Positions 1 to 34,635 of a stretch of DNA of 34,635 nt are shown here, one piece after another. The notes under the pieces were generated by a model, which saw only the letters and a program-made list of their open reading frames with translations, was not told the origin of the DNA and ran no database searches. Source of the stretch: Oscillospiraceae bacterium (lineage in GTDB: Bacteria; Bacillota; Clostridia; Oscillospirales; Acutalibacteraceae); the NCBI GenBank assembly GCA_031266365.1, contig JAISBE010000021.1, forward strand, positions 1 to 34,635, read 5' to 3'. Made by a program: the position numbers and the translations under genes. Each line of letters begins with the position of its first letter. Within the stretch, counting starts at the first letter, position 1.

Positions 1-1
1 A

Positions 2-97
2 GATTACCAATGCACAATCGAGTGTTTACTCGAAAAAAACAGGTTCATCAAAAACCCAAATCAACTTAAAACAGGATGGAAGGTAGCATTATCATGA
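2..97 (+). CDS. C-terminal end of an upstream tail gene (partial, LysM/XkdP-like?)
   Basis: An open frame enters from the left edge and ends at a TGA at 95-97 that overlaps the ATG of the hub gene (ATGA). About 31 residues are visible and end with NPNQLKTGWKVALS. This resembles the close of a LysM-type repeat (NPN-x-PG-x-K-x-x-x), as in XkdP-like proteins encoded just before the hub in Firmicutes contractile tails. The overlap implies translational coupling. Too little is visible for a firm family call. Confidence 0.45.
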   Translation, partial: DYQCTIECLLEKNRFIKNPNQLKTGWKVALS

Positions 98-1260
98 ATT
101 TTGAAGCTCAAACAACAAACGGCGTAACCATAAACCCCGGCAATCCCTTGGCTTTTTGCATAAGTAAATCCAGTGATATCCCCGCAGATAGCCTAACTTG
201 CCTATTTGCAATATCAGAGCCGCATAAATTTAAAAAAATTTGCGTATACGAAAACTTCACAGACTGCCAGCACCCGCAAACTCCAAGCTTTGCCCCCGAA
301 ACAGCAGAGGAAAGACAGTACAAAAATCCTGACCACAAACTAAATTTATTCGCCACTCCGCCTCATGAAGCTTACCCAATCTCAGATTTTCAAAATAACG
401 AACTCAATTTTAAGCCTTCTTTTTCATCAAAAAAACAAAAACATCTTATTTTTAGCGGCTTTGTGGATGAGCAATCATACCTTGAAAGTGCAGCAGGCAG
501 CTTTCTTAAAATCACCGCCAGAAGTCTTGCAGCACTGCTTCTCGACAATGAAGCCCATCCTCAAATATACAGCCACCCATGTTTAGACACACTGTTCAGA
601 AAGCACCTCGCTCCATATGGCGTAACAAGCTTTTTAGGAAGTAACCGCATATTTCACCGAGAATTTCACGTCCACAAAGGGATGAGCGAGTGGGCAGTTT
701 TAGAAAAATTTTGTGAAAACTATTTAAACGTTTCCCCTAGACTTCACTCCAACGGCATTTTTGATGCAACTGTAAGCAAAAACCACAAAAATTTTTCTCC
801 CTCTCAAAATTCTAATTTAACCGAAAATTCCCAATCATTGCACTTTTCCAATAAGTATAGCGGTATTCGCTATACTTCCATTCAGAAATATTACAAAAGG
901 CATCACATACTATCGGATATTTTTATTCGCACAGGCCGCAGCAGTGACTACTCTATACACCTAAAAGATGAGCATTCGCGAGAAGAAAACATAACAAAAA
1001 AGCGCTATATAGATTCATTTGATACGGAAAATTCCGCAATTTTAGGGGAAGTAATGCTATCCTCTTCAAGAAATAAATCTCAGGAAATAATAATCACCAG
1101 CCCTGGGTATATCAAAGCAGAAATATTTGAACAAGCAAGCTTGAATTCGCCAAAATTTGGAAAAATAAACAATTTAATCGTCCATGGCATAAAATATAAA
1201 CGCGATATGCGCTCAGAGTTTAGTCAATTTAGGCTCAAACCTTCAATAAATCAAAACTAA
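94..1260 (+). CDS. Contractile tail baseplate hub protein (Mu gp44 / gpD / XkdQ-like)
   Basis: This is probably the baseplate hub that sits under the tail tube and holds the spike. The protein is about 388 residues if translation starts at ATG 94, where ATGA overlaps the previous stop and GGAAGG lies upstream. An in-frame ATG at 76 is possible but lies further into the upstream gene. The stretch FSGFVDEQSYLES...ITARSLAALLLDNEA matches the hub pattern of a 'GYVD' strand followed by a 'GR/AR-S-x-x-xLLDNEA' strand. It is followed by a segment (HVHKGMSEWAVLEKFC) like the small domain of gp27/gpD hubs. Position directly before spike, gpW, gpJ and gp48 homologues supports the call. In Mu the spike follows at once; here two reversed GTPase genes separate them. 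Confidence 0.75.
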   Translation: MNFEAQTTNGVTINPGNPLAFCISKSSDIPADSLTCLFAISEPHKFKKICVYENFTDCQHPQTPSFAPETAEERQYKNPDHKLNLFATPPHEAYPISDFQNNELNFKPSFSSKKQKHLIFSGFVDEQSYLESAAGSFLKITARSLAALLLDNEAHPQIYSHPCLDTLFRKHLAPYGVTSFLGSNRIFHREFHVHKGMSEWAVLEKFCENYLNVSPRLHSNGIFDATVSKNHKNFSPSQNSNLTENSQSLHFSNKYSGIRYTSIQKYYKRHHILSDIFIRTGRSSDYSIHLKDEHSREENITKKRYIDSFDTENSAILGEVMLSSSRNKSQEIIITSPGYIKAEIFEQASLNSPKFGKINNLIVHGIKYKRDMRSEFSQFRLKPSINQN

Positions 1261-1287
1261 TTTATTAATTCTACCATCTTGCGAAAA

Positions 1288-1953
1288 TTAACAGCAGCCA
1301 ACTTTTCTATTTAATGGCAATTCAATTTCAACAGCCTCAAACCTATCCAATTTCAAACGTTCACCCTTTAAAAGCACCCTAGCAACGATATATTTTAGAT
1401 CATTAATTCCCCCTGAATATCGCGCTGAGGTTTCTAAATAATCATCAACTGTGAAATATATGGCTTTATCTTTCAAATCTTTTCTAATCACCACTTCTTC
1501 AAGATCAGTTTTATTCCCAATCAGAATAATTTTACAATTCGACCCAGCACTATCTCTAACATATTCGATCCACAAATCCACATTTTCAAATGATTTTCTG
1601 TTCGTCTTATCGAACACCACAAGCGCAACATTTGAGCCAGTTAAATAAGTTTTTGTAAGGGCTCTATAGCGTTCTTGGCCTGCTGTATCCCAAACCTGGA
1701 TGAATACCTCCTCTCCTTTAATATCACAAAACTTCATAAGAGATATTCCTGCAAAAATTGTTGGCTCTAAGTCATCTCGGAAAGCGCGATTACCTAACGC
1801 TTCGCAAAGCGCCGTTTTACCAACATCTGCATCTCCAAGCAACACAACCTTATAAATTTTTTTACCTTCTCCAAATACTCTTGTGCTTTGCGCTAAACCA
1901 CAAAATGATAAACAGCTAATTAAAAATCCCAAAAAAACTTTTCTCAAAAACAT
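1288..1953 (-). CDS. Rab-like small GTPase with N-terminal signal peptide and C-terminal Cys-Cys
   Basis: The Ras/Rab G-protein motifs are complete: P-loop GDADVGKT (residues 40-47), switch I Thr in EPTIFAG, switch II WDTAGQE (88-94, with the catalytic Gln), NKTD (147-150) and ETSA (174-177). The segment RYRALTKTYLTGSNVALVVFD is Rab-type. The start is set at ATG 1953, not the upstream ORF start at 2034, because AAAGGGTGG lies just before it. That start exposes a signal peptide: MFLRK, a hydrophobic run, then GLA before Gln22, a plausible signal peptidase I site. LISC inside it could instead be a lipobox. The protein is 221 residues and ends in GCC, like the double-cysteine prenylation end of eukaryotic Rabs. 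It lies 46 bases after a second GTPase gene, reversed inside a tail operon. Export and action in a eukaryotic host are inferences; transfer from a eukaryote is the likeliest origin. Confidence 0.88.
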   Translation of the reverse strand: MFLRKVFLGFLISCLSFCGLAQSTRVFGEGKKIYKVVLLGDADVGKTALCEALGNRAFRDDLEPTIFAGISLMKFCDIKGEEVFIQVWDTAGQERYRALTKTYLTGSNVALVVFDKTNRKSFENVDLWIEYVRDSAGSNCKIILIGNKTDLEEVVIRKDLKDKAIYFTVDDYLETSARYSGGINDLKYIVARVLLKGERLKLDRFEAVEIELPLNRKVGCC

Positions 1954-1999
1954 ACTGGCCACCCTTTCTAAATCAAACAAAATATTTTTATTATAAATA

Positions 2000-2671
2000 T
2001 CACCAACAACGTTTCTTAATTTTTTCGTTCTCATTGACTAAATATATTCTTGGCAAGGGATCAGCTTGATAAAACCCATTTTCACATTCTAAACTCTGTT
2101 TCAATGCACTTAAAAATAATTCATTTATCATTTCATTTGATAAAGCCGACGTTTCAAAATACGGGATATCATGTTCATCTGCCCAAGACTTAACACTTCC
2201 GCCTCCTCTCCGCTCTCTATCTAAATCAACTTTATTGCGCACCAAAATGAACTTGCAGTTCAAAACCCTTTTACTCACTAAATTCAGCCACTTTTCGATA
2301 CTTTTAAATGGCGAAAAATTCATAGCATCAAACACTATGATCGCCACATGCGCTCCTTTATAATAAACCTGATTTGAATATTGGTAGCATTCACTCCCAG
2401 ACATATCAAAAACTTGCATTTTTATGGTATCATTTTCAAAATTTAACTCTTTTGATACACGATTAACCCCAAGAGTAGGTTTATTTTCTAAAAATCCATG
2501 ATTTAAAAACCTTTCTAAAACAGCTGTTTTGCCAACACCCACATCCCCAACCAGCAAAACTTTAGGTGAAAAATTTTCTTCCGAAAAATTTGCGCTTATG
2601 TTTAAATTACTTCTAAGCCCCATGATTTCCGAAATAAGCATAGTAAAAGATAATGCCCTTTTAAAATACAT
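2000..2671 (-). CDS. Rab/Ras-like small GTPase, divergent switch II (Gln to Ser)
   Basis: A second small GTPase of 223 residues. The P-loop is GDVGVGKT (42-49), with KPTLGV as switch I, FDMSGSE (88-94) in place of WDTAGQE, RNKVD as the guanine-specificity motif and FETSA near 170-175. The catalytic Gln position is Ser93, which in Ras proteins slows GTP hydrolysis, so it may be long-lived in the GTP state (inference). Start ATG 2671 is chosen because AGAGGTG sits 6 bases upstream; a GTG at 2680 overlaps this site. The N-terminus (MYFKRALSFTMLISEIMGL) is weakly signal-like but contains a Glu, so export is less certain than for its neighbour. The C-terminus is basic and ends KKRCW, with one Cys near the end. 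It is first in a two-gene minus-strand operon behind a promoter at 2723-2751. Confidence 0.85.
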   Translation of the reverse strand: MYFKRALSFTMLISEIMGLRSNLNISANFSEENFSPKVLLVGDVGVGKTAVLERFLNHGFLENKPTLGVNRVSKELNFENDTIKMQVFDMSGSECYQYSNQVYYKGAHVAIIVFDAMNFSPFKSIEKWLNLVSKRVLNCKFILVRNKVDLDRERRGGGSVKSWADEHDIPYFETSALSNEMINELFLSALKQSLECENGFYQADPLPRIYLVNENEKIKKRCW

Positions 2672-2722
2672 ATCTATCACCTCTTTTATTTTAGATAATT
2701 ATAACCTTATTTAAAAATATTA

Positions 2723-2751
2723 TCAATACTTTTGCACTAATTATTTGTCAA
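2723..2751 (-). promoter_or_regulatory. Putative promoter of the GTPase pair
   Basis: On the minus strand a perfect -35 TTGACA (2751-2746) is followed after 17 bases by TATTGA, running into TAATAT. It lies about 50 bases upstream of the first GTPase start, in AT-rich DNA. The -10 is imperfect. Confidence 0.5.
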
Positions 2752-2833
2752 AATTTACGTATTTTTAAAAAATATTTTATGTATTTTGCTCAACGAAGCC
2801 TGAATTTTAATTTTTAAAAAGGAGGAATTATCC

Positions 2834-3208
2834 ATGCAGCTAAGCCAAAACCCCACAAAACAAGAAGGAGCTACTTTCGGCGAAATAACAGATAGCATAG
2901 AAAACAAAGTCACAGTGCAATCCTCTTCTGAGCACAGAAATATCCCTATAATTGCACCGTTTGGCCTAACTTATTCGCCACCAATCGGCGAAAATACCGT
3001 TTTACTGCACAGCGGTGAAAAATTCATCAGTACCGGCGTATTTATGAAAAATAAAAAACTAAAACCCGGAGAATTAATGCTCTATTCACAATCAGGCGCA
3101 AACATATTACTAAATAACCACGGCGAAATCATACTGACATCAAGCGGCGGCGCTAAAATCATCCTAGATAAATCCGGCAAAATTTTTCTCAATAACTGTG
3201 TATTATAG
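2834..3208 (+). CDS. Baseplate spike / assembly protein V (gpV, Mu gp45-like)
   Basis: This 124-residue protein probably forms the membrane-piercing spike at the tail tip. An N-terminal OB-fold-like part (residues about 10-75, GATFGEITDSIENKVTVQ...IIAPFGLTYSPPIGENTVLL) is followed by short repeated beta strands with Gly/Asn turns (GANILLNNHGEIILTSSGGAKIILDKSGKIFLNN). These resemble the triple-stranded beta-helix of gpV/gp45 spikes. The ATG at 2834 has a strong AAAGGAGG site. It is followed 57 bases later by the gpW gene. It is short for the family, with no obvious C-terminal metal-binding tip motif. Restarting transcription after the reversed GTPase pair would need its own promoter or read-through. 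Confidence 0.75.
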   Translation: MQLSQNPTKQEGATFGEITDSIENKVTVQSSSEHRNIPIIAPFGLTYSPPIGENTVLLHSGEKFISTGVFMKNKKLKPGELMLYSQSGANILLNNHGEIILTSSGGAKIILDKSGKIFLNNCVL

Positions 3209-3264
3209 CACAACAAATTTTCTCTAATAAGCCCTTATTTAGTCAATCAAAGGAGGTCAACAGC

Positions 3265-3612
3265 TTGGACACACTCATCAAAGATGGCGATTTTTCTTTA
3301 AATAGCAGCGGTCAACCTTTAACAATTTTCGGTACACAAGAGATTTTGCAAAGAGTCAGGCTTCAACTTTGCATAAAAAAAGGCAGTTTTTTATATAACC
3401 CTGACCTCGGCAGCGACCTATTCACACTGCCAACTTATAATGGAGATATAGAAACCAAAGCCCTCTTTCTCACAAAAAAAGCCCTAGAAGATATCAGCGG
3501 CACTGCAGTAGAGGGGGTGAAAGTTCAAAAAAATCAAGAAGAACAACTTCAATTAAAAATATCAATTCTCATTAATCAAAAAAAGCATTCACTTGAAGTT
3601 AATATTAAATAA
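3265..3612 (+). CDS. Baseplate wedge protein gpW/gp25-like
   Basis: A 115-residue protein of the GPW/gp25 family, a baseplate wedge component that helps start sheath assembly. Diagnostic features are 'GQPLTIFGTQEILQRVRLQL', then 'KGSFLYNPDLGSDLFTLP', a typical gp25-like core, and a C-terminal beta region. It starts with TTG at 3265 behind a near-perfect AAAGGAGGTC. It sits between spike and baseplate J as in Mu (gp46) and P2-like tails. Confidence 0.8.
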   Translation: MDTLIKDGDFSLNSSGQPLTIFGTQEILQRVRLQLCIKKGSFLYNPDLGSDLFTLPTYNGDIETKALFLTKKALEDISGTAVEGVKVQKNQEEQLQLKISILINQKKHSLEVNIK

Positions 3613-3650
3613 AATCAGTGGCTTTAAATATAGAAAGGCGGTGGCTAAAT

Positions 3651-4730
3651 TTGGCAGACACTTATAAATCTATACTCGAAAGAATGAAAGAAAAATTTAG
3701 CGAATTATCCGGTTTCCAAGTCAACGAAACCTCAGATATCGGCATCAGAATGCGCGTGCTCGCTGGAGAAATTTTCTCTGCTTTAACAAATTTAGAGTGG
3801 CTAAAAAGGCAGATATTCCCCCAAACGGCCGAAAATTTTCAACTAGATCTACACGCTCAACAAAGAGGGCTCACAAGGAAAAAATCAACGAAATCAACCG
3901 GTACTCTAAAATTCACAAGAACTTCCCCATTAGACTACGATATAATAATCCCCCAAAACACAACTTGCATCGCCCACAATTGCGAAGGAATCTTCAATCA
4001 GCCCCTCTACTTTAAAACAACCCAAGAAGCCACACTAAAAGCCGGCCAGCTTGAGGTTTCTGTTTCAGCGGAATCACAGGACAGCGGTGCCAAAATGAAC
4101 ACCGCGCCCAAAACCATCACGGTGATGTCCGATCCCCCCGCTGGGATAAGTGCCGTTATAAATTTGAAAGAATTCACAGGCGGCACCGACGCAGAAGACG
4201 ATTCACAACTTCGGGCACGCCTTCTTCAAAGTTATAAAAATATCCCCAACGGCACAAATTGCGCTTTCTATAAAAACATCGCGCTAAAGCACGAAGGCAT
4301 TCACTCCGTGAGCGTTTTGCCAAGGGAACGCGGTCGCGGCACTGTGGACATTTACATCGCAGCGCAGGGCTCTGTTCCCAACCCAGAAATAGTCCAAGCG
4401 ATACAAAAAGAAATAACCGATTTACGCGAAATTAACGTCGACGTCCAGGTGCACACAGCAACTCTTTTAAGCCTAACCCTCACTGTGGAAATTGAAATAA
4501 AGCCCGACTACACATTCAGCGAAGTAAAAGAAGCATGCGAAAGCGCGATTAAAGGGTATTTTTATTCATTGAAAATCGGCGAAGACGTTAGACTTTGCGC
4601 CGTCGGCAACGTGATTTTTAGCGTCAACGGCGTGCACAACTACTCTTTCTCCGGCGGGTTGTCTCACGACAAATCCATCGACAAAAAGCAGCTCGCTGTT
4701 TTGAAATCTGTTTCCATAATTCTAAAATGA
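3651..4730 (+). CDS. Baseplate J-like protein (gpJ, Mu gp47-like)
   Basis: This protein links baseplate wedges and is conserved in contractile tails and injection systems. Features are the N-terminal 'YKSILERMKEKFSELSGF...GIRMRVLAGEIFSALTNLEWLKRQIFPQTA', a central beta domain with 'EFTGGTDAEDDSQLRARLLQ', and a C-terminal alpha/beta domain. I place the start at TTG 3651, because AAAGGCGG lies 9 bases before it. A GTG at 3618 would add 11 residues but has no good ribosome site. From 3651 the protein is 359 residues, normal for the family. It is followed 11 bases later by the gp48-like gene. Confidence 0.85.
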   Translation: MADTYKSILERMKEKFSELSGFQVNETSDIGIRMRVLAGEIFSALTNLEWLKRQIFPQTAENFQLDLHAQQRGLTRKKSTKSTGTLKFTRTSPLDYDIIIPQNTTCIAHNCEGIFNQPLYFKTTQEATLKAGQLEVSVSAESQDSGAKMNTAPKTITVMSDPPAGISAVINLKEFTGGTDAEDDSQLRARLLQSYKNIPNGTNCAFYKNIALKHEGIHSVSVLPRERGRGTVDIYIAAQGSVPNPEIVQAIQKEITDLREINVDVQVHTATLLSLTLTVEIEIKPDYTFSEVKEACESAIKGYFYSLKIGEDVRLCAVGNVIFSVNGVHNYSFSGGLSHDKSIDKKQLAVLKSVSIILK

Positions 4731-4741
4731 GGTGATTTATC

Positions 4742-5221
4742 TTGCCCTGCCTGAATTCCTTGACGCAAAATCTCATCCCTCTCGGCTTCTACAACCTAAA
4801 TAAAAACTCCCTAATTTTCGCCGAACTCTCCGCATATGCGGCCGCACTTGATGAGCTCTTTGCAAAAATAGATGAAGTTGAAAAAGAGTGCTTTCTCGGC
4901 ACTGCCACTGGGTTTGGTCTAGACAATATGGAACGAATTTTGGGCTCTCCGCAAAAAGATCTGCCAGTGCAAGCGCGGCGCGAAATGCTCATCAAGCGTA
5001 TATCGATCACAGAGAACAATTTTACAAAGCTCGGGATAATAAATTCCATAATCGCTTCCGGAATGCGTACAGAAATCGAAGAAACCCCAACCGAGGAAAA
5101 ATTGCACATTAAGTGCACAGAAATATTAAAGCCTTTGCAATCAAATTTACAATATATAAGATCGGCAATGGAATTTCTCCCGGCACATATCGAAGCGACA
5201 TTCGATTTTCCCAAAACCTAA
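4742..5221 (+). CDS. Baseplate-associated protein, YmfQ/DUF2313 family (Mu gp48-like)
   Basis: A 159-residue protein with the YmfQ layout: an N-terminal helical part (LSAYAAALDELFAKIDEVEKECFLGTATGFGLDNMERILG), an 'R-R-E-M-L-I-K-R' helix, and a C-terminal part ending 'LPAHIEATFDF', as in Mu gp48. It starts with TTG at 4742 behind GAGGTGAT. In Mu-like phages the tail fibre gene comes next, but here the operon ends and no fibre, chaperone, lysis or head gene follows in the window. Confidence 0.75.
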   Translation: MPCLNSLTQNLIPLGFYNLNKNSLIFAELSAYAAALDELFAKIDEVEKECFLGTATGFGLDNMERILGSPQKDLPVQARREMLIKRISITENNFTKLGIINSIIASGMRTEIEETPTEEKLHIKCTEILKPLQSNLQYIRSAMEFLPAHIEATFDFPKT

Positions 5222-5396
5222 AACTCAATTTATCCCACACAGAAAATCATAAAATCAATGCATCTACAATAATAAAATATAAACCTTTTTGCAAAATTAG
5301 CGTTTAAAAGTAGGTCTGCTATATCATCACACTGCCATGTTCCTTCAACAAATCTTGACCGCAACAGATTTTTTTAAATTAAGCACCTCAAGCCAA

Positions 5397-5810
5397 TCAG
5401 ACTTTGATCAAGCGCCCTATGCACTTTTGTTGCGGCATGCCTAAAGTCTTTATTATCAATTGAATAAGCTGTTGGTCTGTTTCACAAATATTTTTAATTT
5501 TATCGTCAAATACTTCATAAACAGCCCATTTGCTTCCATTTTTGCTGATATAACGGATCGAATAAATGCAATATTCAGCTTTTTCAAGCATTTCGCTAAA
5601 CTGACAAGTCTTATCCGCTTTCACTAAAAATACAGGCTCTTTATTTCGGTCATCTAAATCCACATCCCAATTGCTTTTGCGATCGCCCTGAATTAAATTT
5701 TCTTCCTTACATAAACCAATTTCCAAAACTTTATATTCATCATCCGCCAAAACATTAGTATAAAACACAAAATTTAATGATAATAGCAAAACAGACAAAA
5801 CTCTTTTCAT
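5397..5810 (-). CDS. Small secreted protein of unknown function with several cysteines
   Basis: A 137-residue protein with a clear Sec signal peptide: MKRVLSVLLLSLNFVFYTNVLA, with cleavage likely after VLA before DDEYKVLE. The mature part is acidic to mixed and has cysteines in GLCKEEN, KTCQF, EYCIYS, NICETD and KCIGR. These could form disulfides outside the cell. I do not recognise a family. AAGGGATG lies upstream of ATG 5810. It is reversed relative to the tail operon and shares with the first GTPase the combination of signal peptide and placement next to tail genes. A role as exported accessory or effector is speculation. Confidence 0.65.
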   Translation of the reverse strand: MKRVLSVLLLSLNFVFYTNVLADDEYKVLEIGLCKEENLIQGDRKSNWDVDLDDRNKEPVFLVKADKTCQFSEMLEKAEYCIYSIRYISKNGSKWAVYEVFDDKIKNICETDQQLIQLIIKTLGMPQQKCIGRLIKV

Positions 5811-6169
5811 AAAATCTACACATCCCTTAAAATCATTTAAATTTCAACTAAAAATCCATAATTTAAGTTTAACATGTTTTATAATATTTTCAACATTTTT
5901 TAGAAATTATATTCAATTTATTTAGCATTTTTATACTATTTTTTAAAAAAATTATATCAAAAATAAAAACTTTCGCGCAACAAAAACTCTCCCGAATCAA
6001 TTAAAAATACAGGGCGCATCACGCCAAATATCGCAAAATCACCTTAAAAATTTTACAAAAATCAAGAAAACTGTGATAAAATAAAAAAGTGTTTGAATGA
6101 AAATATTCTCAACAGCGCAGAAATTAGCACCTATCTGCCAAACAAATATTAAGACAAGAAGGTAAAACT
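5811..6169. other. AT-rich intergenic region with probable yycJ promoter
   Basis: Very AT-rich DNA between divergent genes, with no ORF of note. An extended -10 element TGTGATAAAAT at 6072-6082 (plus strand) lies about 90 bases before the metallo-hydrolase start and is its likely promoter. The -35 is poor. Confidence 0.4.
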
Positions 6170-31150: not shown

Positions 31151-31576
31151 TCATGCCACGGTGCACTCGCGAGAAATTGCTATTGCATCTCTCACTGCCT
31201 TACATAGCATAAGGAGCGGCCCACCTGGAAGTACGTATGCTCCTATTATAGATGCTACAAACGCAGCGCTTACAGTGCCCTTCAGGAACGCATCTATCAT
31301 CTCAGGATGAGAACGCAGATAATCCATAATCCTGTTCACTGCGCAACCAAGGCAAAATCCGCTACTCAACCATGGTCTGTCGGGCAGGTTTCTTGTAACG
31401 CATACCAATATTGTCAAATCATTGCCACAATTGTCACAATGCCCTATTGGGCCAGTTAATCCTCCCGGCGCGCCGCCGTTCACTTGCTCCAGCTCCTTTA
31501 AGCTAAGCTCAACAACCTCGCTGTTGTTTAAATTGGTTTTGCTTAATAATTGTTCTTCTGTTTGAATTTTTAACAT
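31151..31576 (-). CDS. Double-glycine-leader peptide with zinc-ribbon-like core (cassette C)
   Basis: A 141-residue precursor. Leader residues 1-35 (MLKIQTEEQLLSKTNL... ending ELEQVNGG) perfectly match the bacteriocin-type leader with Glu -8, Leu -7, Val -4 and GG. The core of about 106 residues begins APGGLTGP. It has C47-x2-C50 and C75-x2-C78, a spacing like a small zinc ribbon or disulfide knot, then a helical segment. It ends in a Gly/Ala/Leu-rich hydrophobic tail (ASIIGAYVLPGGPLLMLC) and CTVA. AAAGGAAC precedes ATG 31576. The core is longer than usual class II bacteriocins. Secretion would need a C39-peptidase exporter, not in this window. Toxin, signal or effector roles are all possible. 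Confidence 0.8.
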   Translation of the reverse strand: MLKIQTEEQLLSKTNLNNSEVVELSLKELEQVNGGAPGGLTGPIGHCDNCGNDLTILVCVTRNLPDRPWLSSGFCLGCAVNRIMDYLRSHPEMIDAFLKGTVSAAFVASIIGAYVLPGGPLLMLCKAVRDAIAISRECTVA

Positions 31577-32511: not shown

Positions 32512-32928
32512 TCATGCCACAGCGCAGAATCTAAAACCCATTAGCGCAGCTACTGTAGCACATATCTGGCGGGCTATTTTAACGGGAAGCCATATCCCTC
32601 CCAGTATCGCCGCGAAATGCGCCGCATTTATAGTGCCATTCACTATTTGGTCCAGTACCTCAGGATGTTCCTTTACATAATCTTTCACCATGTCCACCGC
32701 GCAACCGAAACAAATTCCACTATCCTTCCAGTTTTGGTCGGGCAGCTGTCTTGTAACGTATACCAATAACGTGTTATTGTTGGCACATCGATCACAATGA
32801 CCAAACCCGGGTGAATCACCTACTGGCGCGCCACCGATTACTCGCTCCACCTCCTCCACTGAAAGCGCGATTGGGCCGGAAATATTCATGTTTAATAATT
32901 GTTCTCCTGTTTTTACATTTTTATTCAT
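32512..32928 (-). CDS. Double-glycine-leader peptide with zinc-ribbon-like core (cassette B)
   Basis: A 138-residue precursor. The leader (1-33) ends SVEEVERVIGG, and the core starts APVGDSPG. The core has C45-x2-C48 and C73-x2-C76, with LVYVTRQLPDQNW between, very like the cassette C core (GHCDxC, VTRxLPDxxW, GxCxGCAV). It ends in a hydrophobic amphipathic tail (AAHFAAILGGIWLP...) and FCAVA. AAAGGG lies 8 bases before ATG 32928; the longer frame from 32991 is not needed. The leader DNA is more diverged from the other two cassettes. Confidence 0.8.
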   Translation of the reverse strand: MNKNVKTGEQLLNMNISGPIALSVEEVERVIGGAPVGDSPGFGHCDRCANNNTLLVYVTRQLPDQNWKDSGICFGCAVDMVKDYVKEHPEVLDQIVNGTINAAHFAAILGGIWLPVKIARQICATVAALMGFRFCAVA

Positions 32929-33075
32929 GGTTATTACCCTTTCTTTTAAAAATAAATTTTTAATTATAAATATTGTATTTTTAGTTTTCACGCCACGTTG
33001 CAGCGTTCATAGCGATCTTCTACTTGGGTATGCACACACATTTAAAAATCAACTAACGGGCAAATATAAAACTTT

Positions 33076-33816: not shown

Positions 33817-34212
33817 TCAATGTACAGTTATGGTGCCAGCATCAAACACTGTTTTTGCAACTCCAATCACCACACCGAATGGCCCATACTTTGCAGCATT
33901 CTTAAAAGTAGCACCAACGTTGGCAGCCAAGCGCGCCGCGTCTGTTATACTTTGTCGCCTGTTTTTCTCTTCAATGCAGCGTGCGCATAAAGTAGGATAA
34001 CCGGGGACTTCTATCACTGTTGCGCCACAAATTTGGCAATGAGCGTACGTTACACCAGGCCGTTGATAAGGTGCCCTCACCCCGTCACAAATCGTGTGCC
34101 CTCCTCCGTGGCCGGTGACTTGCTCCAGCTCATTCAAGCTAAGCTCTGCTAGCTCGCTGTTGTTTAAATTGGTTTTGCTTAATAATTGTTCTTCTGTTTG
34201 AATTTTTAACAT
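33817..34212 (-). CDS. Double-glycine-type leader peptide with zinc-ribbon-like core (cassette A)
   Basis: A 131-residue precursor from ATG 34212 (AAAGGGAAC upstream). Leader residues 1-33 are nearly identical to cassette C (MLKIQTEEQLLSKTNLNNSE...), but the cleavage site reads ELEQVTGHGGG, with His where the second Gly is expected. The core has C59-x2-C62 and C76-x2-C79 with a shorter gap than the other cassettes, then a basic helix. It ends in a Gly/Ala/Val-rich tail (KYGPFGVVIGVAKTVFDAG). It shares leader but not core with cassette C, as if cores are exchanged behind a constant leader. Confidence 0.75.
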   Translation of the reverse strand: MLKIQTEEQLLSKTNLNNSELAELSLNELEQVTGHGGGHTICDGVRAPYQRPGVTYAHCQICGATVIEVPGYPTLCARCIEEKNRRQSITDAARLAANVGATFKNAAKYGPFGVVIGVAKTVFDAGTITVH

Positions 34213-34635
34213 AATAATATGTTCCCTTTCATTTAAATAAAATTTTTTAAAATAGTGACAATTTGAGAAACTAAACTTTCTCAAAAGTGGTATAATTAAA
34301 AATATACCAAATATTTTTTACCCTGAAAATAAATGCATGGCGTACACCTCCCGGTTCAGCGCAAAACTTTGCTGTTTTAGCTGAATGTATTTGTGAAAAA
34401 ATGGCTATCCGGCTAAAAAATTATTTACGAGTTTATCGCGAGTATTCAAGTAAATATATTTTTGGAAATGTTACGTTGTTTGTTAGTTGGACGTAATGTT
34501 GGGTTCATAAGTGTGACAATTTCTTGAAAAACCATTCCCTCACCTTTTTATTATATCACATATAGTTCCGTTTCGGCAACAACTTTTTCTGTTTTTAACA
34601 ACATTTTTTTGCTTTTTTCTCATTTGTATAATTTT
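34118..34635. repeat. Long direct repeat: peptide leader and 5' region (copy 2, runs off window)
   Basis: Counterpart of 31482-31998, including the leader codons, the two dyads, the MHLFSG mini-frame and the promoter. The window ends inside it, so a further cassette may lie to the right. Confidence 0.9.
34550..34579 (-). promoter_or_regulatory. Promoter of cassette A
   Basis: Minus-strand TTGCCG (34579-34574), 18 bases, TGTGATATAAT (TATAAT 34555-34550), identical in layout to 31913-31942. Confidence 0.6.

What the first reader, a model, noticed from the sequence alone, without database searches (positions are those of the whole stretch)
1288..1953. Secreted Rab-like GTPase with a eukaryotic-style Cys-Cys end
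The sequence shows all five Ras/Rab G motifs with an intact catalytic Gln, a ribosome-site-supported start that exposes a Sec signal peptide, and a terminal GCC. Established knowledge: terminal CC/CXC is the geranylgeranylation signal of eukaryotic Rabs, and bacteria lack that machinery. Inference: the protein was acquired from a eukaryote and is exported to act on host membranes.
Basis: partly seen in the sequence, partly recalled or inferred. Interest (0 to 1): 0.95.

Follow-up and report, generated by a model that had tools for sequence, protein, structure and literature searches.

The report
Secreted Rab look-alikes with lipid-anchor tails
A bacterium with a very small genome carries two side-by-side genes for Rab-like switch proteins, one of which starts with a predicted export leader and ends in the Cys-Cys of eukaryotic Rabs, so it likely releases a counterfeit Rab that a host cell would lipid-anchor to its own membranes.

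Summary
Window 1288-1953(-) encodes a 221-aa Rab-like GTPase with intact G motifs and catalytic Gln, a Shine-Dalgarno-supported start giving a predicted Sec leader, and a GCC end. (1) A second Rab-like GTPase (2000-2671, -) lies directly upstream, with Ser for the catalytic Gln and only a doubtful leader. (2) The pair sits between hub and spike-like genes of a prophage-tail remnant; these adjoin in three relatives. (3) The leader + Rab + prenyl-tail design recurs: in nine genomes of the family 19 of 53 Rab-like GTPases end in CC, CXC or CAAX, against CC/CXC in 0 of 259 other ORFs and no such tail in 31 archaeal GTPases. In two relatives, 20 of 22 paralogue pairs show dN>dS while leaders, and mostly tails, stay alike. 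Rab genes and signal peptides are already published for this clade (PMC10579323); its main text does not mention prenylation. This genome lies outside the sampled ATP-translocase lineages and has no translocase hit. Best reading: a Sec-exported Rab mimic that the host would geranylgeranylate. Secretion, prenylation, host and donor are unproven; the gene tree does not resolve the donor.

The parts
1288..1953 (-). GTPase-1: Rab-like GTPase, 221 aa, predicted Sec leader, intact G1/G3/G4/G5, ends GCC
1891..1953 (-). predicted Sec leader of GTPase-1, residues 1-21, cleavage-type site GLA|Q
   Evidence: hydropathy and -3/-1 rule; no SignalP run
1291..1296 (-). codons of the terminal Cys-Cys
1959..1967 (-). 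Shine-Dalgarno-like AAAGGGTGG before ATG 1953
2000..2671 (-). GTPase-2: Rab-like GTPase, 223 aa, doubtful leader, G3 DMSGSE (Ser for Gln), ends KKRCW
2591..2671 (-). possible leader of GTPase-2, residues 1-27
   Evidence: core 1.55, within the range of non-exported window proteins (up to 1.86-2.01), so not decided; relative P0122 scores 3.0
2678..2684 (-). Shine-Dalgarno-like AGAGGTG before ATG 2671
2698..2726 (-). promoter-like TTGATA-17-TATAAT upstream of the pair (11 of 12, best in 1-6000)
   Evidence: 22 such sites found against a mean of 17.0 in shuffles, so weak alone
76..1260 (+). baseplate-hub-like gene of the prophage-tail remnant
   Evidence: phrog_177 7.8e-4; 30% to L036 hub, 4.7e-40; no Pfam match
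2834..3208 (+). gene next to the hub in relatives, spike-like by place (my label)
   Evidence: 36-38% to L036/L037 neighbours; phrog_25991, unknown function
3265..3612 (+). baseplate wedge-like gene
   Evidence: phrog_975 2.3e-5, phrog_43 1.1e-4
3618..4730 (+). Baseplate_J gene
   Evidence: Pfam 1e-48, phrog_6 3.4e-66
4742..5221 (+). gp48-like tail gene
   Evidence: Pfam just under its cut-off

Best explanation
Window 1288-1953(-) encodes a Rab-like GTPase with a predicted Sec leader and a Gly-Cys-Cys end, which the cell likely secretes into a eukaryotic host, whose own Rab escort protein and geranylgeranyl transferase would lipidate the CC end so that the mimic sits on host membranes and likely diverts vesicle traffic. 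Its upstream partner GTPase-2 (2000-2671) likely does a related job, perhaps in a GTP-locked form. Shown by sequence: the two genes and their spacing, the G motifs, the leader-like N terminus of GTPase-1, the CC end, the Gln-to-Ser change in GTPase-2, and the place between hub and spike-like genes. Inferred: one transcript; Sec export, which in a single-membrane cell means release outside; entry to the host cytosol; prenylation; GTP cycling; export and state of GTPase-2; host and donor.
For: Rab fold and sequence. Leader and start. Recurrence: 19 of 53 Rab-like GTPases in nine family genomes end CC/CXC/CAAX, 16 of them CC/CXC, on unlike leaders; 44 of the 53 have a hydrophobic leader core of 2.0 or more, against 3 of 22 other window proteins. 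Controls: CC/CXC in 0 of 259 other ORFs (recounted), all tail types in 0 of 31 complete archaeal GTPases; Fisher p 5.7e-14 and 6.5e-5, though paralogues are not independent. The arrangements are those listed for the Rab transferase (PMC1175975 passages). P0122, 57% like GTPase-2, ends CAVF. Paralogues in G005 and G321: dN>dS in 20 of 22 pairs (bootstrap at least 0.95 in 9), leaders more alike than bodies in 21 of 22 and last 12 residues in 18 of 22; in the 7 pairs from Cys-ended families 6 of 7 and 7 of 7 for dN>dS and tails. Five SecA pairs show the usual excess at third positions. Small genome, 1.10 Mb at 98.67% complete.
Against: 34 of 53 GTPases lack such an end; many in G005 have, by eye, a hydrophobic C-terminal stretch instead. 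CXC ends also occur in 2 of 14 other bacterial Rab-like frames, so the tail is not special to this clade. GTPase-2 ends RCW and its leader score (1.55) is no better than that of cytosolic window proteins. This genome has no ATP/ADP translocase hit and one sub-cut-off ankyrin hit, so intracellular life is not shown. No host is known. Vacuolar residents would need a second crossing step. The selection data come from relatives. The donor is unresolved, and the 102-row tree puts GTPase-1 with other clostridial GTPases, not with any eukaryotic Rab (98/87).
Confidence: 0.6

Rival explanations
1. The GTPases are exported but the Cys tail is an unused relic of the donor gene: they act at the bacterial surface or in a vacuole and are never prenylated.
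For: 34 of 53 relatives lack the tail, G005 has a family with a hydrophobic C-terminal stretch (by eye), and GTPase-2 ends RCW.
Against: In the seven pairs from Cys-ended families the paralogues are only 53-71% alike, yet the last 12 residues are more alike than the body in all seven. The ends take the several forms that eukaryotic prenyl transferases use and sit on unlike leaders.
Confidence: 0.22
2. They are cargo of a phage-tail-like injection particle rather than Sec substrates, since they sit inside a tail module.
For: Placed between hub and spike-like genes; two relatives with such GTPases encode a contractile sheath and Baseplate_J genes.
Against: In this genome no PF04984 sheath and no match to the relative's terminase was found; the genes face the other way with their own promoter-like site; the GTPase-1 leader is Sec-like; no GTPase match of G005 or G033 lies on the contigs that carry sheath or Baseplate_J. 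The contig starts at the hub gene, so missing parts cannot be excluded.
Confidence: 0.07
3. They are house GTPases of the bacterium (MglA-like polarity switches) with no host role.
For: Small Ras-like GTPases do occur in free-living bacteria; some form a clade without CC ends. GTPase-2's leader is doubtful.
Against: GTPase-1's leader would remove it from the cytosol; the sequence is closest to Rabs; I found Rab-like proteins in 9 of 398 family genomes (six more matched in frames of 459-1194 aa, not examined), and in 391 genomes of the class every match outside G000 lay in a frame of 347 aa or more, not examined.
Confidence: 0.06
4. Contaminating eukaryotic DNA or an assembly error.
For: The genome is a 22-contig draft.
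Against: One 34.6-kb contig with SecA, PyrG and tRNA genes on the same piece, bacterial ribosome-binding sites, uninterrupted frames, leader-bearing Rab-like genes in eight other genomes.
Confidence: 0.02

Closest known systems
Eukaryote-like Rab GTPases of the clostridial 'small genome clade' (Takahashi et al. 2023, PMC10579323; abstract, Results section and passages read)
   Same: Same family by inference (G005 carries an Oscillospiraceae record title, and is listed as same family as the window), genomes near 1 Mb, small GTPases mainly of Rab type, signal peptides predicted for at least 20 of 42 eukaryote-like proteins, proposed acquisition from protists.
   Different: The window genome falls outside the sampled translocase lineages in the SecA tree and has no ATP/ADP translocase hit. 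In that paper's main text no word begins with prenyl, geranyl, cysteine, CAAX, C-termin, secretion, phage or injection (it does speak of Sec export and names prophages once as a gene category). Its supplementary tables could not be read here.
Legionella Rab-domain effectors (review passages, PMC7542358)
   Same: Bacterial proteins with a eukaryotic Rab GTPase domain thought to subvert host trafficking.
   Different: Delivered by Dot/Icm (established knowledge). The two Legionella-type loci in my scan (L102, L128) are 327 and 304 aa and end ANCRV and IDLRM, so the leader-plus-CC design was not seen in these two.
Host-prenylated CaaX effectors: Legionella AnkB and Pel proteins (passages, PMC7542358 and PMC13081727), Salmonella GtgE (search listing only, PMC13423502)
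   Same: A bacterial protein carries a eukaryotic prenylation signal to reach host membranes.
   Different: Those use CaaX boxes. Here the end is the CC/CXC type used by Rab escort protein plus RabGGTase, on a Rab itself, with a predicted Sec leader.
Eukaryotic Rabs (Rab43, Rab8, Rab11, Rab6)
   Different: Predicted N-terminal export leader; 33-48% local identity in the listed hits; GTPase-2 lacks the catalytic Gln.

Membership tests
Rab GTPase | Ras-family domain with G1, G3, G4 and G5 motifs | tested here: met
   GTPase-2 has Ser at the catalytic Gln
Rab GTPase | Rab fold | tested here: met
Rab GTPase | C-terminal prenylatable Cys arrangement | tested here: met
   GTPase-1 GCC; GTPase-2 has only one Cys in its last five (RCW). 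Arrangements per PMC1175975 passages
Rab GTPase | Branches within eukaryotic Rabs | tested here: inconclusive
   GTPase-1 with clostridial rows, apart from eukaryotes and archaea (98/87, long branches); no supported place, archaea a clade without it (100/99); sister to archaea not rejected (p-AU 0.086)
Rab GTPase | GTP cycling and geranylgeranylation by RabGGTase with REP | not testable with these tools
   needs protein
Clostridial small genome clade (PMC10579323) | Reduced genome of about 1 Mb | tested here: met
   1,101,550 bases, 98.67% complete
Clostridial small genome clade (PMC10579323) | ATP/ADP translocase | tested here: not met
   no PF03219 match; the paper itself names one member without it, GCA_017634155.1, which may or may not be this genome
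Clostridial small genome clade (PMC10579323) | Placement in the clade | tested here: inconclusive
   SecA: outside the 100/100 clade of seven; sister position 64/61; grouping with G005, G151, G121 rejected, p-AU 0.0004; with G035, G028 p-AU 0.52. One gene only
Sec-secreted protein | n-region, hydrophobic core, -3/-1 cleavage site (GTPase-1) | tested here: met
   by simple hydropathy; no SignalP
Sec-secreted protein | n-region, hydrophobic core, -3/-1 cleavage site (GTPase-2) | tested here: inconclusive
   core 1.55, within the range of cytosolic window proteins; relative P0122 3.0
MglA/Rup bacterial GTPases | Placement in that family | not tested
   no MglA or Rup sequence was in the tree; 12 other bacterial MAG GTPases were, and GTPase-1 is not in their two CC-less clades
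Dot/Icm-type effector | Type IV secretion signal and apparatus | not tested
   no search for such a system was run

The most novel reading that the evidence does not exclude
A previously unrecognised effector class: monoderm bacteria living in protists release counterfeit Rabs through the ordinary Sec pathway, with no needle or type IV machine, and rely on the host's Rab escort protein and geranylgeranyl transferase to install them on host membranes. The leader and CC/CXC/CAAX tail are kept while the switch body diversifies under positive selection, in at least two lineages, one of them without an ATP/ADP translocase.
Probability: 0.45. Interest if true: 0.85.

Novelty: new variant of a known kind. 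Interest (0 to 1): 0.66.

Why it matters
Host-prenylated effectors are known to me mainly as CaaX proteins of type III or IV secretors. A Rab mimic that uses the Rab-type CC/CXC tail and plain Sec export would show that a single-membrane symbiont needs no dedicated injector to reach host trafficking. It would give a sequence rule (leader + Ras domain + terminal Cys) for finding such effectors in uncultured symbionts, and it makes an open question about bacterial Rab-like proteins testable: whether they really enter the host Rab cycle.

Tried and rejected
Longer start at 2034: no ribosome site and no leader. Close relatives in named genomes by the single protein: none. Contractile injection system in this genome: no PF04984 sheath; the tail genes match a prophage in G020 with terminase and capsid matches and a portal match just under its cut-off, so I read them as a prophage remnant. 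Terminase in this genome by L036 query: none. Tandem duplication of the two GTPases: neither shown nor rejected (p-AU 0.24). One clostridial CC family: p-AU 0.23. Eukaryotic donor by tree: unresolved; three tests did not finish, two were completed and the third (both GTPases with eukaryotes) was not repeated. Ankyrin as a sign of host life: one sub-cut-off hit in G000. Lipoprotein reading of the leader: considered by eye only. Literature: searches listed only 12 of 594 and 12 of 81 papers.

Rows dropped: G005:C77 (in-frame stop), so 27 of 28 G005 matches are in the tail table; one of four G412 matches (589-aa frame) not extracted; six family genomes whose matches lie in 459-1194-aa frames not examined; two GTPases were misfiled among 261 'other' ORFs and I recount 259; five G005 and two G033 rows judged degenerate, and the G203, both G337 and two G412 rows, left out of the 102-row tree; 66 of those 102 used; two archaeal frames cut by contig ends and one 39-aa frame left out of the 31; G321 is not in the SecA tree because no SecA match was found. 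The two G151/G121 rows with low leader scores were scored from an ATG that is probably not the start.

Full report
Observation. The minus-strand frame 1288-1953 is a 221-residue Ras-family protein (Pfam Ras 1.5e-37). GDADVGKT, DTAGQE, NKTD and ETSA are all present and the last residues are KVGCC. ATG 1953 has AAAGGGTGG five bases before it; ATG 2034 has nothing of the kind. With the 1953 start the protein begins MFLRK and a hydrophobic core (mean hydropathy 2.70), followed by GLA|Q; with the 2034 start this is lost (0.86). Of 22 other window proteins scored, 19 lie at 1.86 or below; the three above are QueT (2.24, a membrane transporter), a hexapeptide protein (2.01) and a small leader-bearing protein at 5397-5810(-) (2.49). 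Five eukaryotic Rabs score 0.57-1.83. This was a hydropathy and -3/-1 check, not SignalP.

Setting. The pair lies on the opposite strand between a baseplate-hub-like gene (76-1260) and a spike-like gene (2834-3208), followed by wedge, Baseplate_J and gp48-like genes. I compared five relatives with Baseplate_J; in three (G020, G006, G030) the hub and spike-like genes adjoin or overlap, the other two gave no hub or spike match. In G020 the run is a prophage with terminase and capsid matches and a portal match just under its cut-off. No PF04984 sheath and no match to that terminase was found in this genome. The tail genes therefore look like a prophage remnant into which the GTPase pair was inserted; the contig begins at the hub gene, so the rest cannot be seen.

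Recurrence. A search of 60 relatives found GTPase-1 homologues in 3: G000, G005 and G033. A search of 398 family genomes found matches in 15; from nine of them I extracted Rab-like proteins, six matched only in frames of 459-1194 aa and were not examined. In 391 genomes of the class 11 had a match; outside G000 every match lay in a frame of 347 to 1392 aa, which from length I take to be ordinary large GTPases, unexamined. The nine genomes gave 53 Rab-like proteins. Ends in CC, CXC or CAAX: G000 1 of 2, G005 6 of 27, G033 0 of 5, G121 0 of 2, G151 4 of 4, G203 1 of 1, G321 6 of 7, G337 1 of 2, G412 0 of 3, in all 19 of 53, 16 of them CC/CXC. One G121 protein ends CCKK, also an arrangement listed for the Rab transferase (PMC1175975 passages). 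Of the 53, 44 have a leader core of 2.0 or more; two G412 frames are cut at contig ends. Controls: CC/CXC in 0 of 259 other ORFs of at least 100 aa from the same loci, with two CaaX-like ends (recounted); 0 of 31 complete archaeal GTPases with any such tail; but 2 of 14 other bacterial Rab-like frames end CXC. Fisher p 5.7e-14 against the ORFs and 6.5e-5 against the archaea, with the caution that paralogues are not independent.

Selection. In G005 and G321, 22 paralogue pairs are at least 50% identical. dN exceeds dS in 20 of 22 (bootstrap at least 0.95 in 9), differences at codon positions 1 and 2 rival or exceed those at position 3, leaders are more alike than bodies in 21 of 22 pairs and last twelve residues in 18 of 22. 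Seven of these pairs come from Cys-ended families: 6 of 7 have dN>dS and in 7 of 7 the last twelve residues are more alike than the body. Five SecA pairs treated the same way show the usual excess at position 3. This suggests diversifying selection on the body between a kept leader and, mostly, a kept tail. It is a simple NG86 count, pairs share members, recombination between paralogues could add to it, and it was not possible for the window genes themselves.

The genome. 1.10 Mb, 98.67% complete. The SecA tree puts six translocase-bearing genomes and G151 in one clade (100/100) with G000 outside it; a sister position is possible (64/61), grouping with G005, G151 and G121 is rejected (p-AU 0.0004) and a position with the large-genome G035 and G028 is not (0.52). 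No ATP/ADP translocase was found in G000 or G151. This is either a basal member of the published clade or a separate reduction.

Origin. In the 102-row tree a starred split (98/87) puts GTPase-1 with 39 clostridial rows and one gammaproteobacterial row, apart from all eukaryotic and archaeal rows; several of these branches are long and the join may be an artefact. GTPase-2 lies on the other side and pairs with P0122 beside trichomonad and environmental Rabs without full support (87/83 and 95/52). In a 66-row tree no starred set holds GTPase-1 and the archaeal GTPases form a clade without either (100/99). A sister position to archaea is not rejected for GTPase-1 (p-AU 0.086) or GTPase-2 (0.40). 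A eukaryotic donor is the likeliest reading but is not shown, and for GTPase-1 it may be an old acquisition shared by this bacterial family.

Literature. Rab-type small GTPases and signal peptides in this clade are published (PMC10579323; abstract, Results section and passages). In its main text no word begins with prenyl, geranyl, cysteine, CAAX, C-termin, phage or injection; its supplements were not readable. Searches for prenylated bacterial Rabs in Clostridia or symbionts (seen as listings, those of 88 and 89 capped at 12 papers) showed no such report, in an open-access library. Host-prenylated CaaX effectors of Legionella are known (passages).

Verdict. Most likely GTPase-1 is a Sec-exported Rab mimic meant for host prenylation, with GTPase-2 as a partner of unsettled export. 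The export, the lipid, the host and the donor remain to be shown. On checking I lowered the claim for GTPase-2's leader and added the tree result for GTPase-1; the odds rest on GTPase-1 and are unchanged.

Noticed in passing
L031-L032 (G005:C72), L033-L034 (G033:C36, C7): Cluster with contractile sheath, two gp19-type tube genes, GPD hub (under cut-off), Phage_base_V spike, gp25, two long Baseplate_J frames and Tail_P2_I in G005 (sheath and J also in G033), with no head gene among the ten G005 proteins scanned: looks like a contractile injection system in the small-genome clade.
   Followed up: partly
G005 loci L043, L047, L048, L050, L051, L053, L063: A second GTPase family with leader MKFKKF/MNFKKF...VSA/VHA and, by eye, a C-terminal hydrophobic stretch instead of Cys ends.
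   Followed up: partly
L087 8001-8525 (Deltaproteobacteria MAG nzgw171): Rab-like protein with leader-like N terminus and end SCKC; also CAC, CCM and CCN ends in an Acidobacteria and two Gammaproteobacteria MAGs (L114, L090, L094; contamination not excluded).
   Followed up: no
window 31151-31576, 32512-32991, 33817-34284 (-): Three small proteins with, by eye, related double-glycine-type leader peptides; two end in CaaX-like CTVA and CAVA, perhaps by chance.
   Followed up: no
window 5397-5810 (-): 137-aa protein with a strong predicted Sec leader and no Pfam, PHROG or NCBIfam match at E 0.001, next to the tail remnant.
   Followed up: no
G151:C27 and G203:C10 (L198, L205): Ankyrin-repeat matches lie within about 1.2 kb of a leader-bearing Rab-like GTPase gene.
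   Followed up: no
G005:C7 (L040 1588-5504): The ATP/ADP translocase match is followed within 0.6 kb by two Rab-like genes in a row (ends KCSC and AGYC).
   Followed up: no
G005:C93, G033:C49 (L071, L072): A terminase 57-66% identical to that of the G020 prophage in two reduced genomes, one copy with a stop: an old shared prophage or gene-transfer-agent-like element.
   Followed up: no
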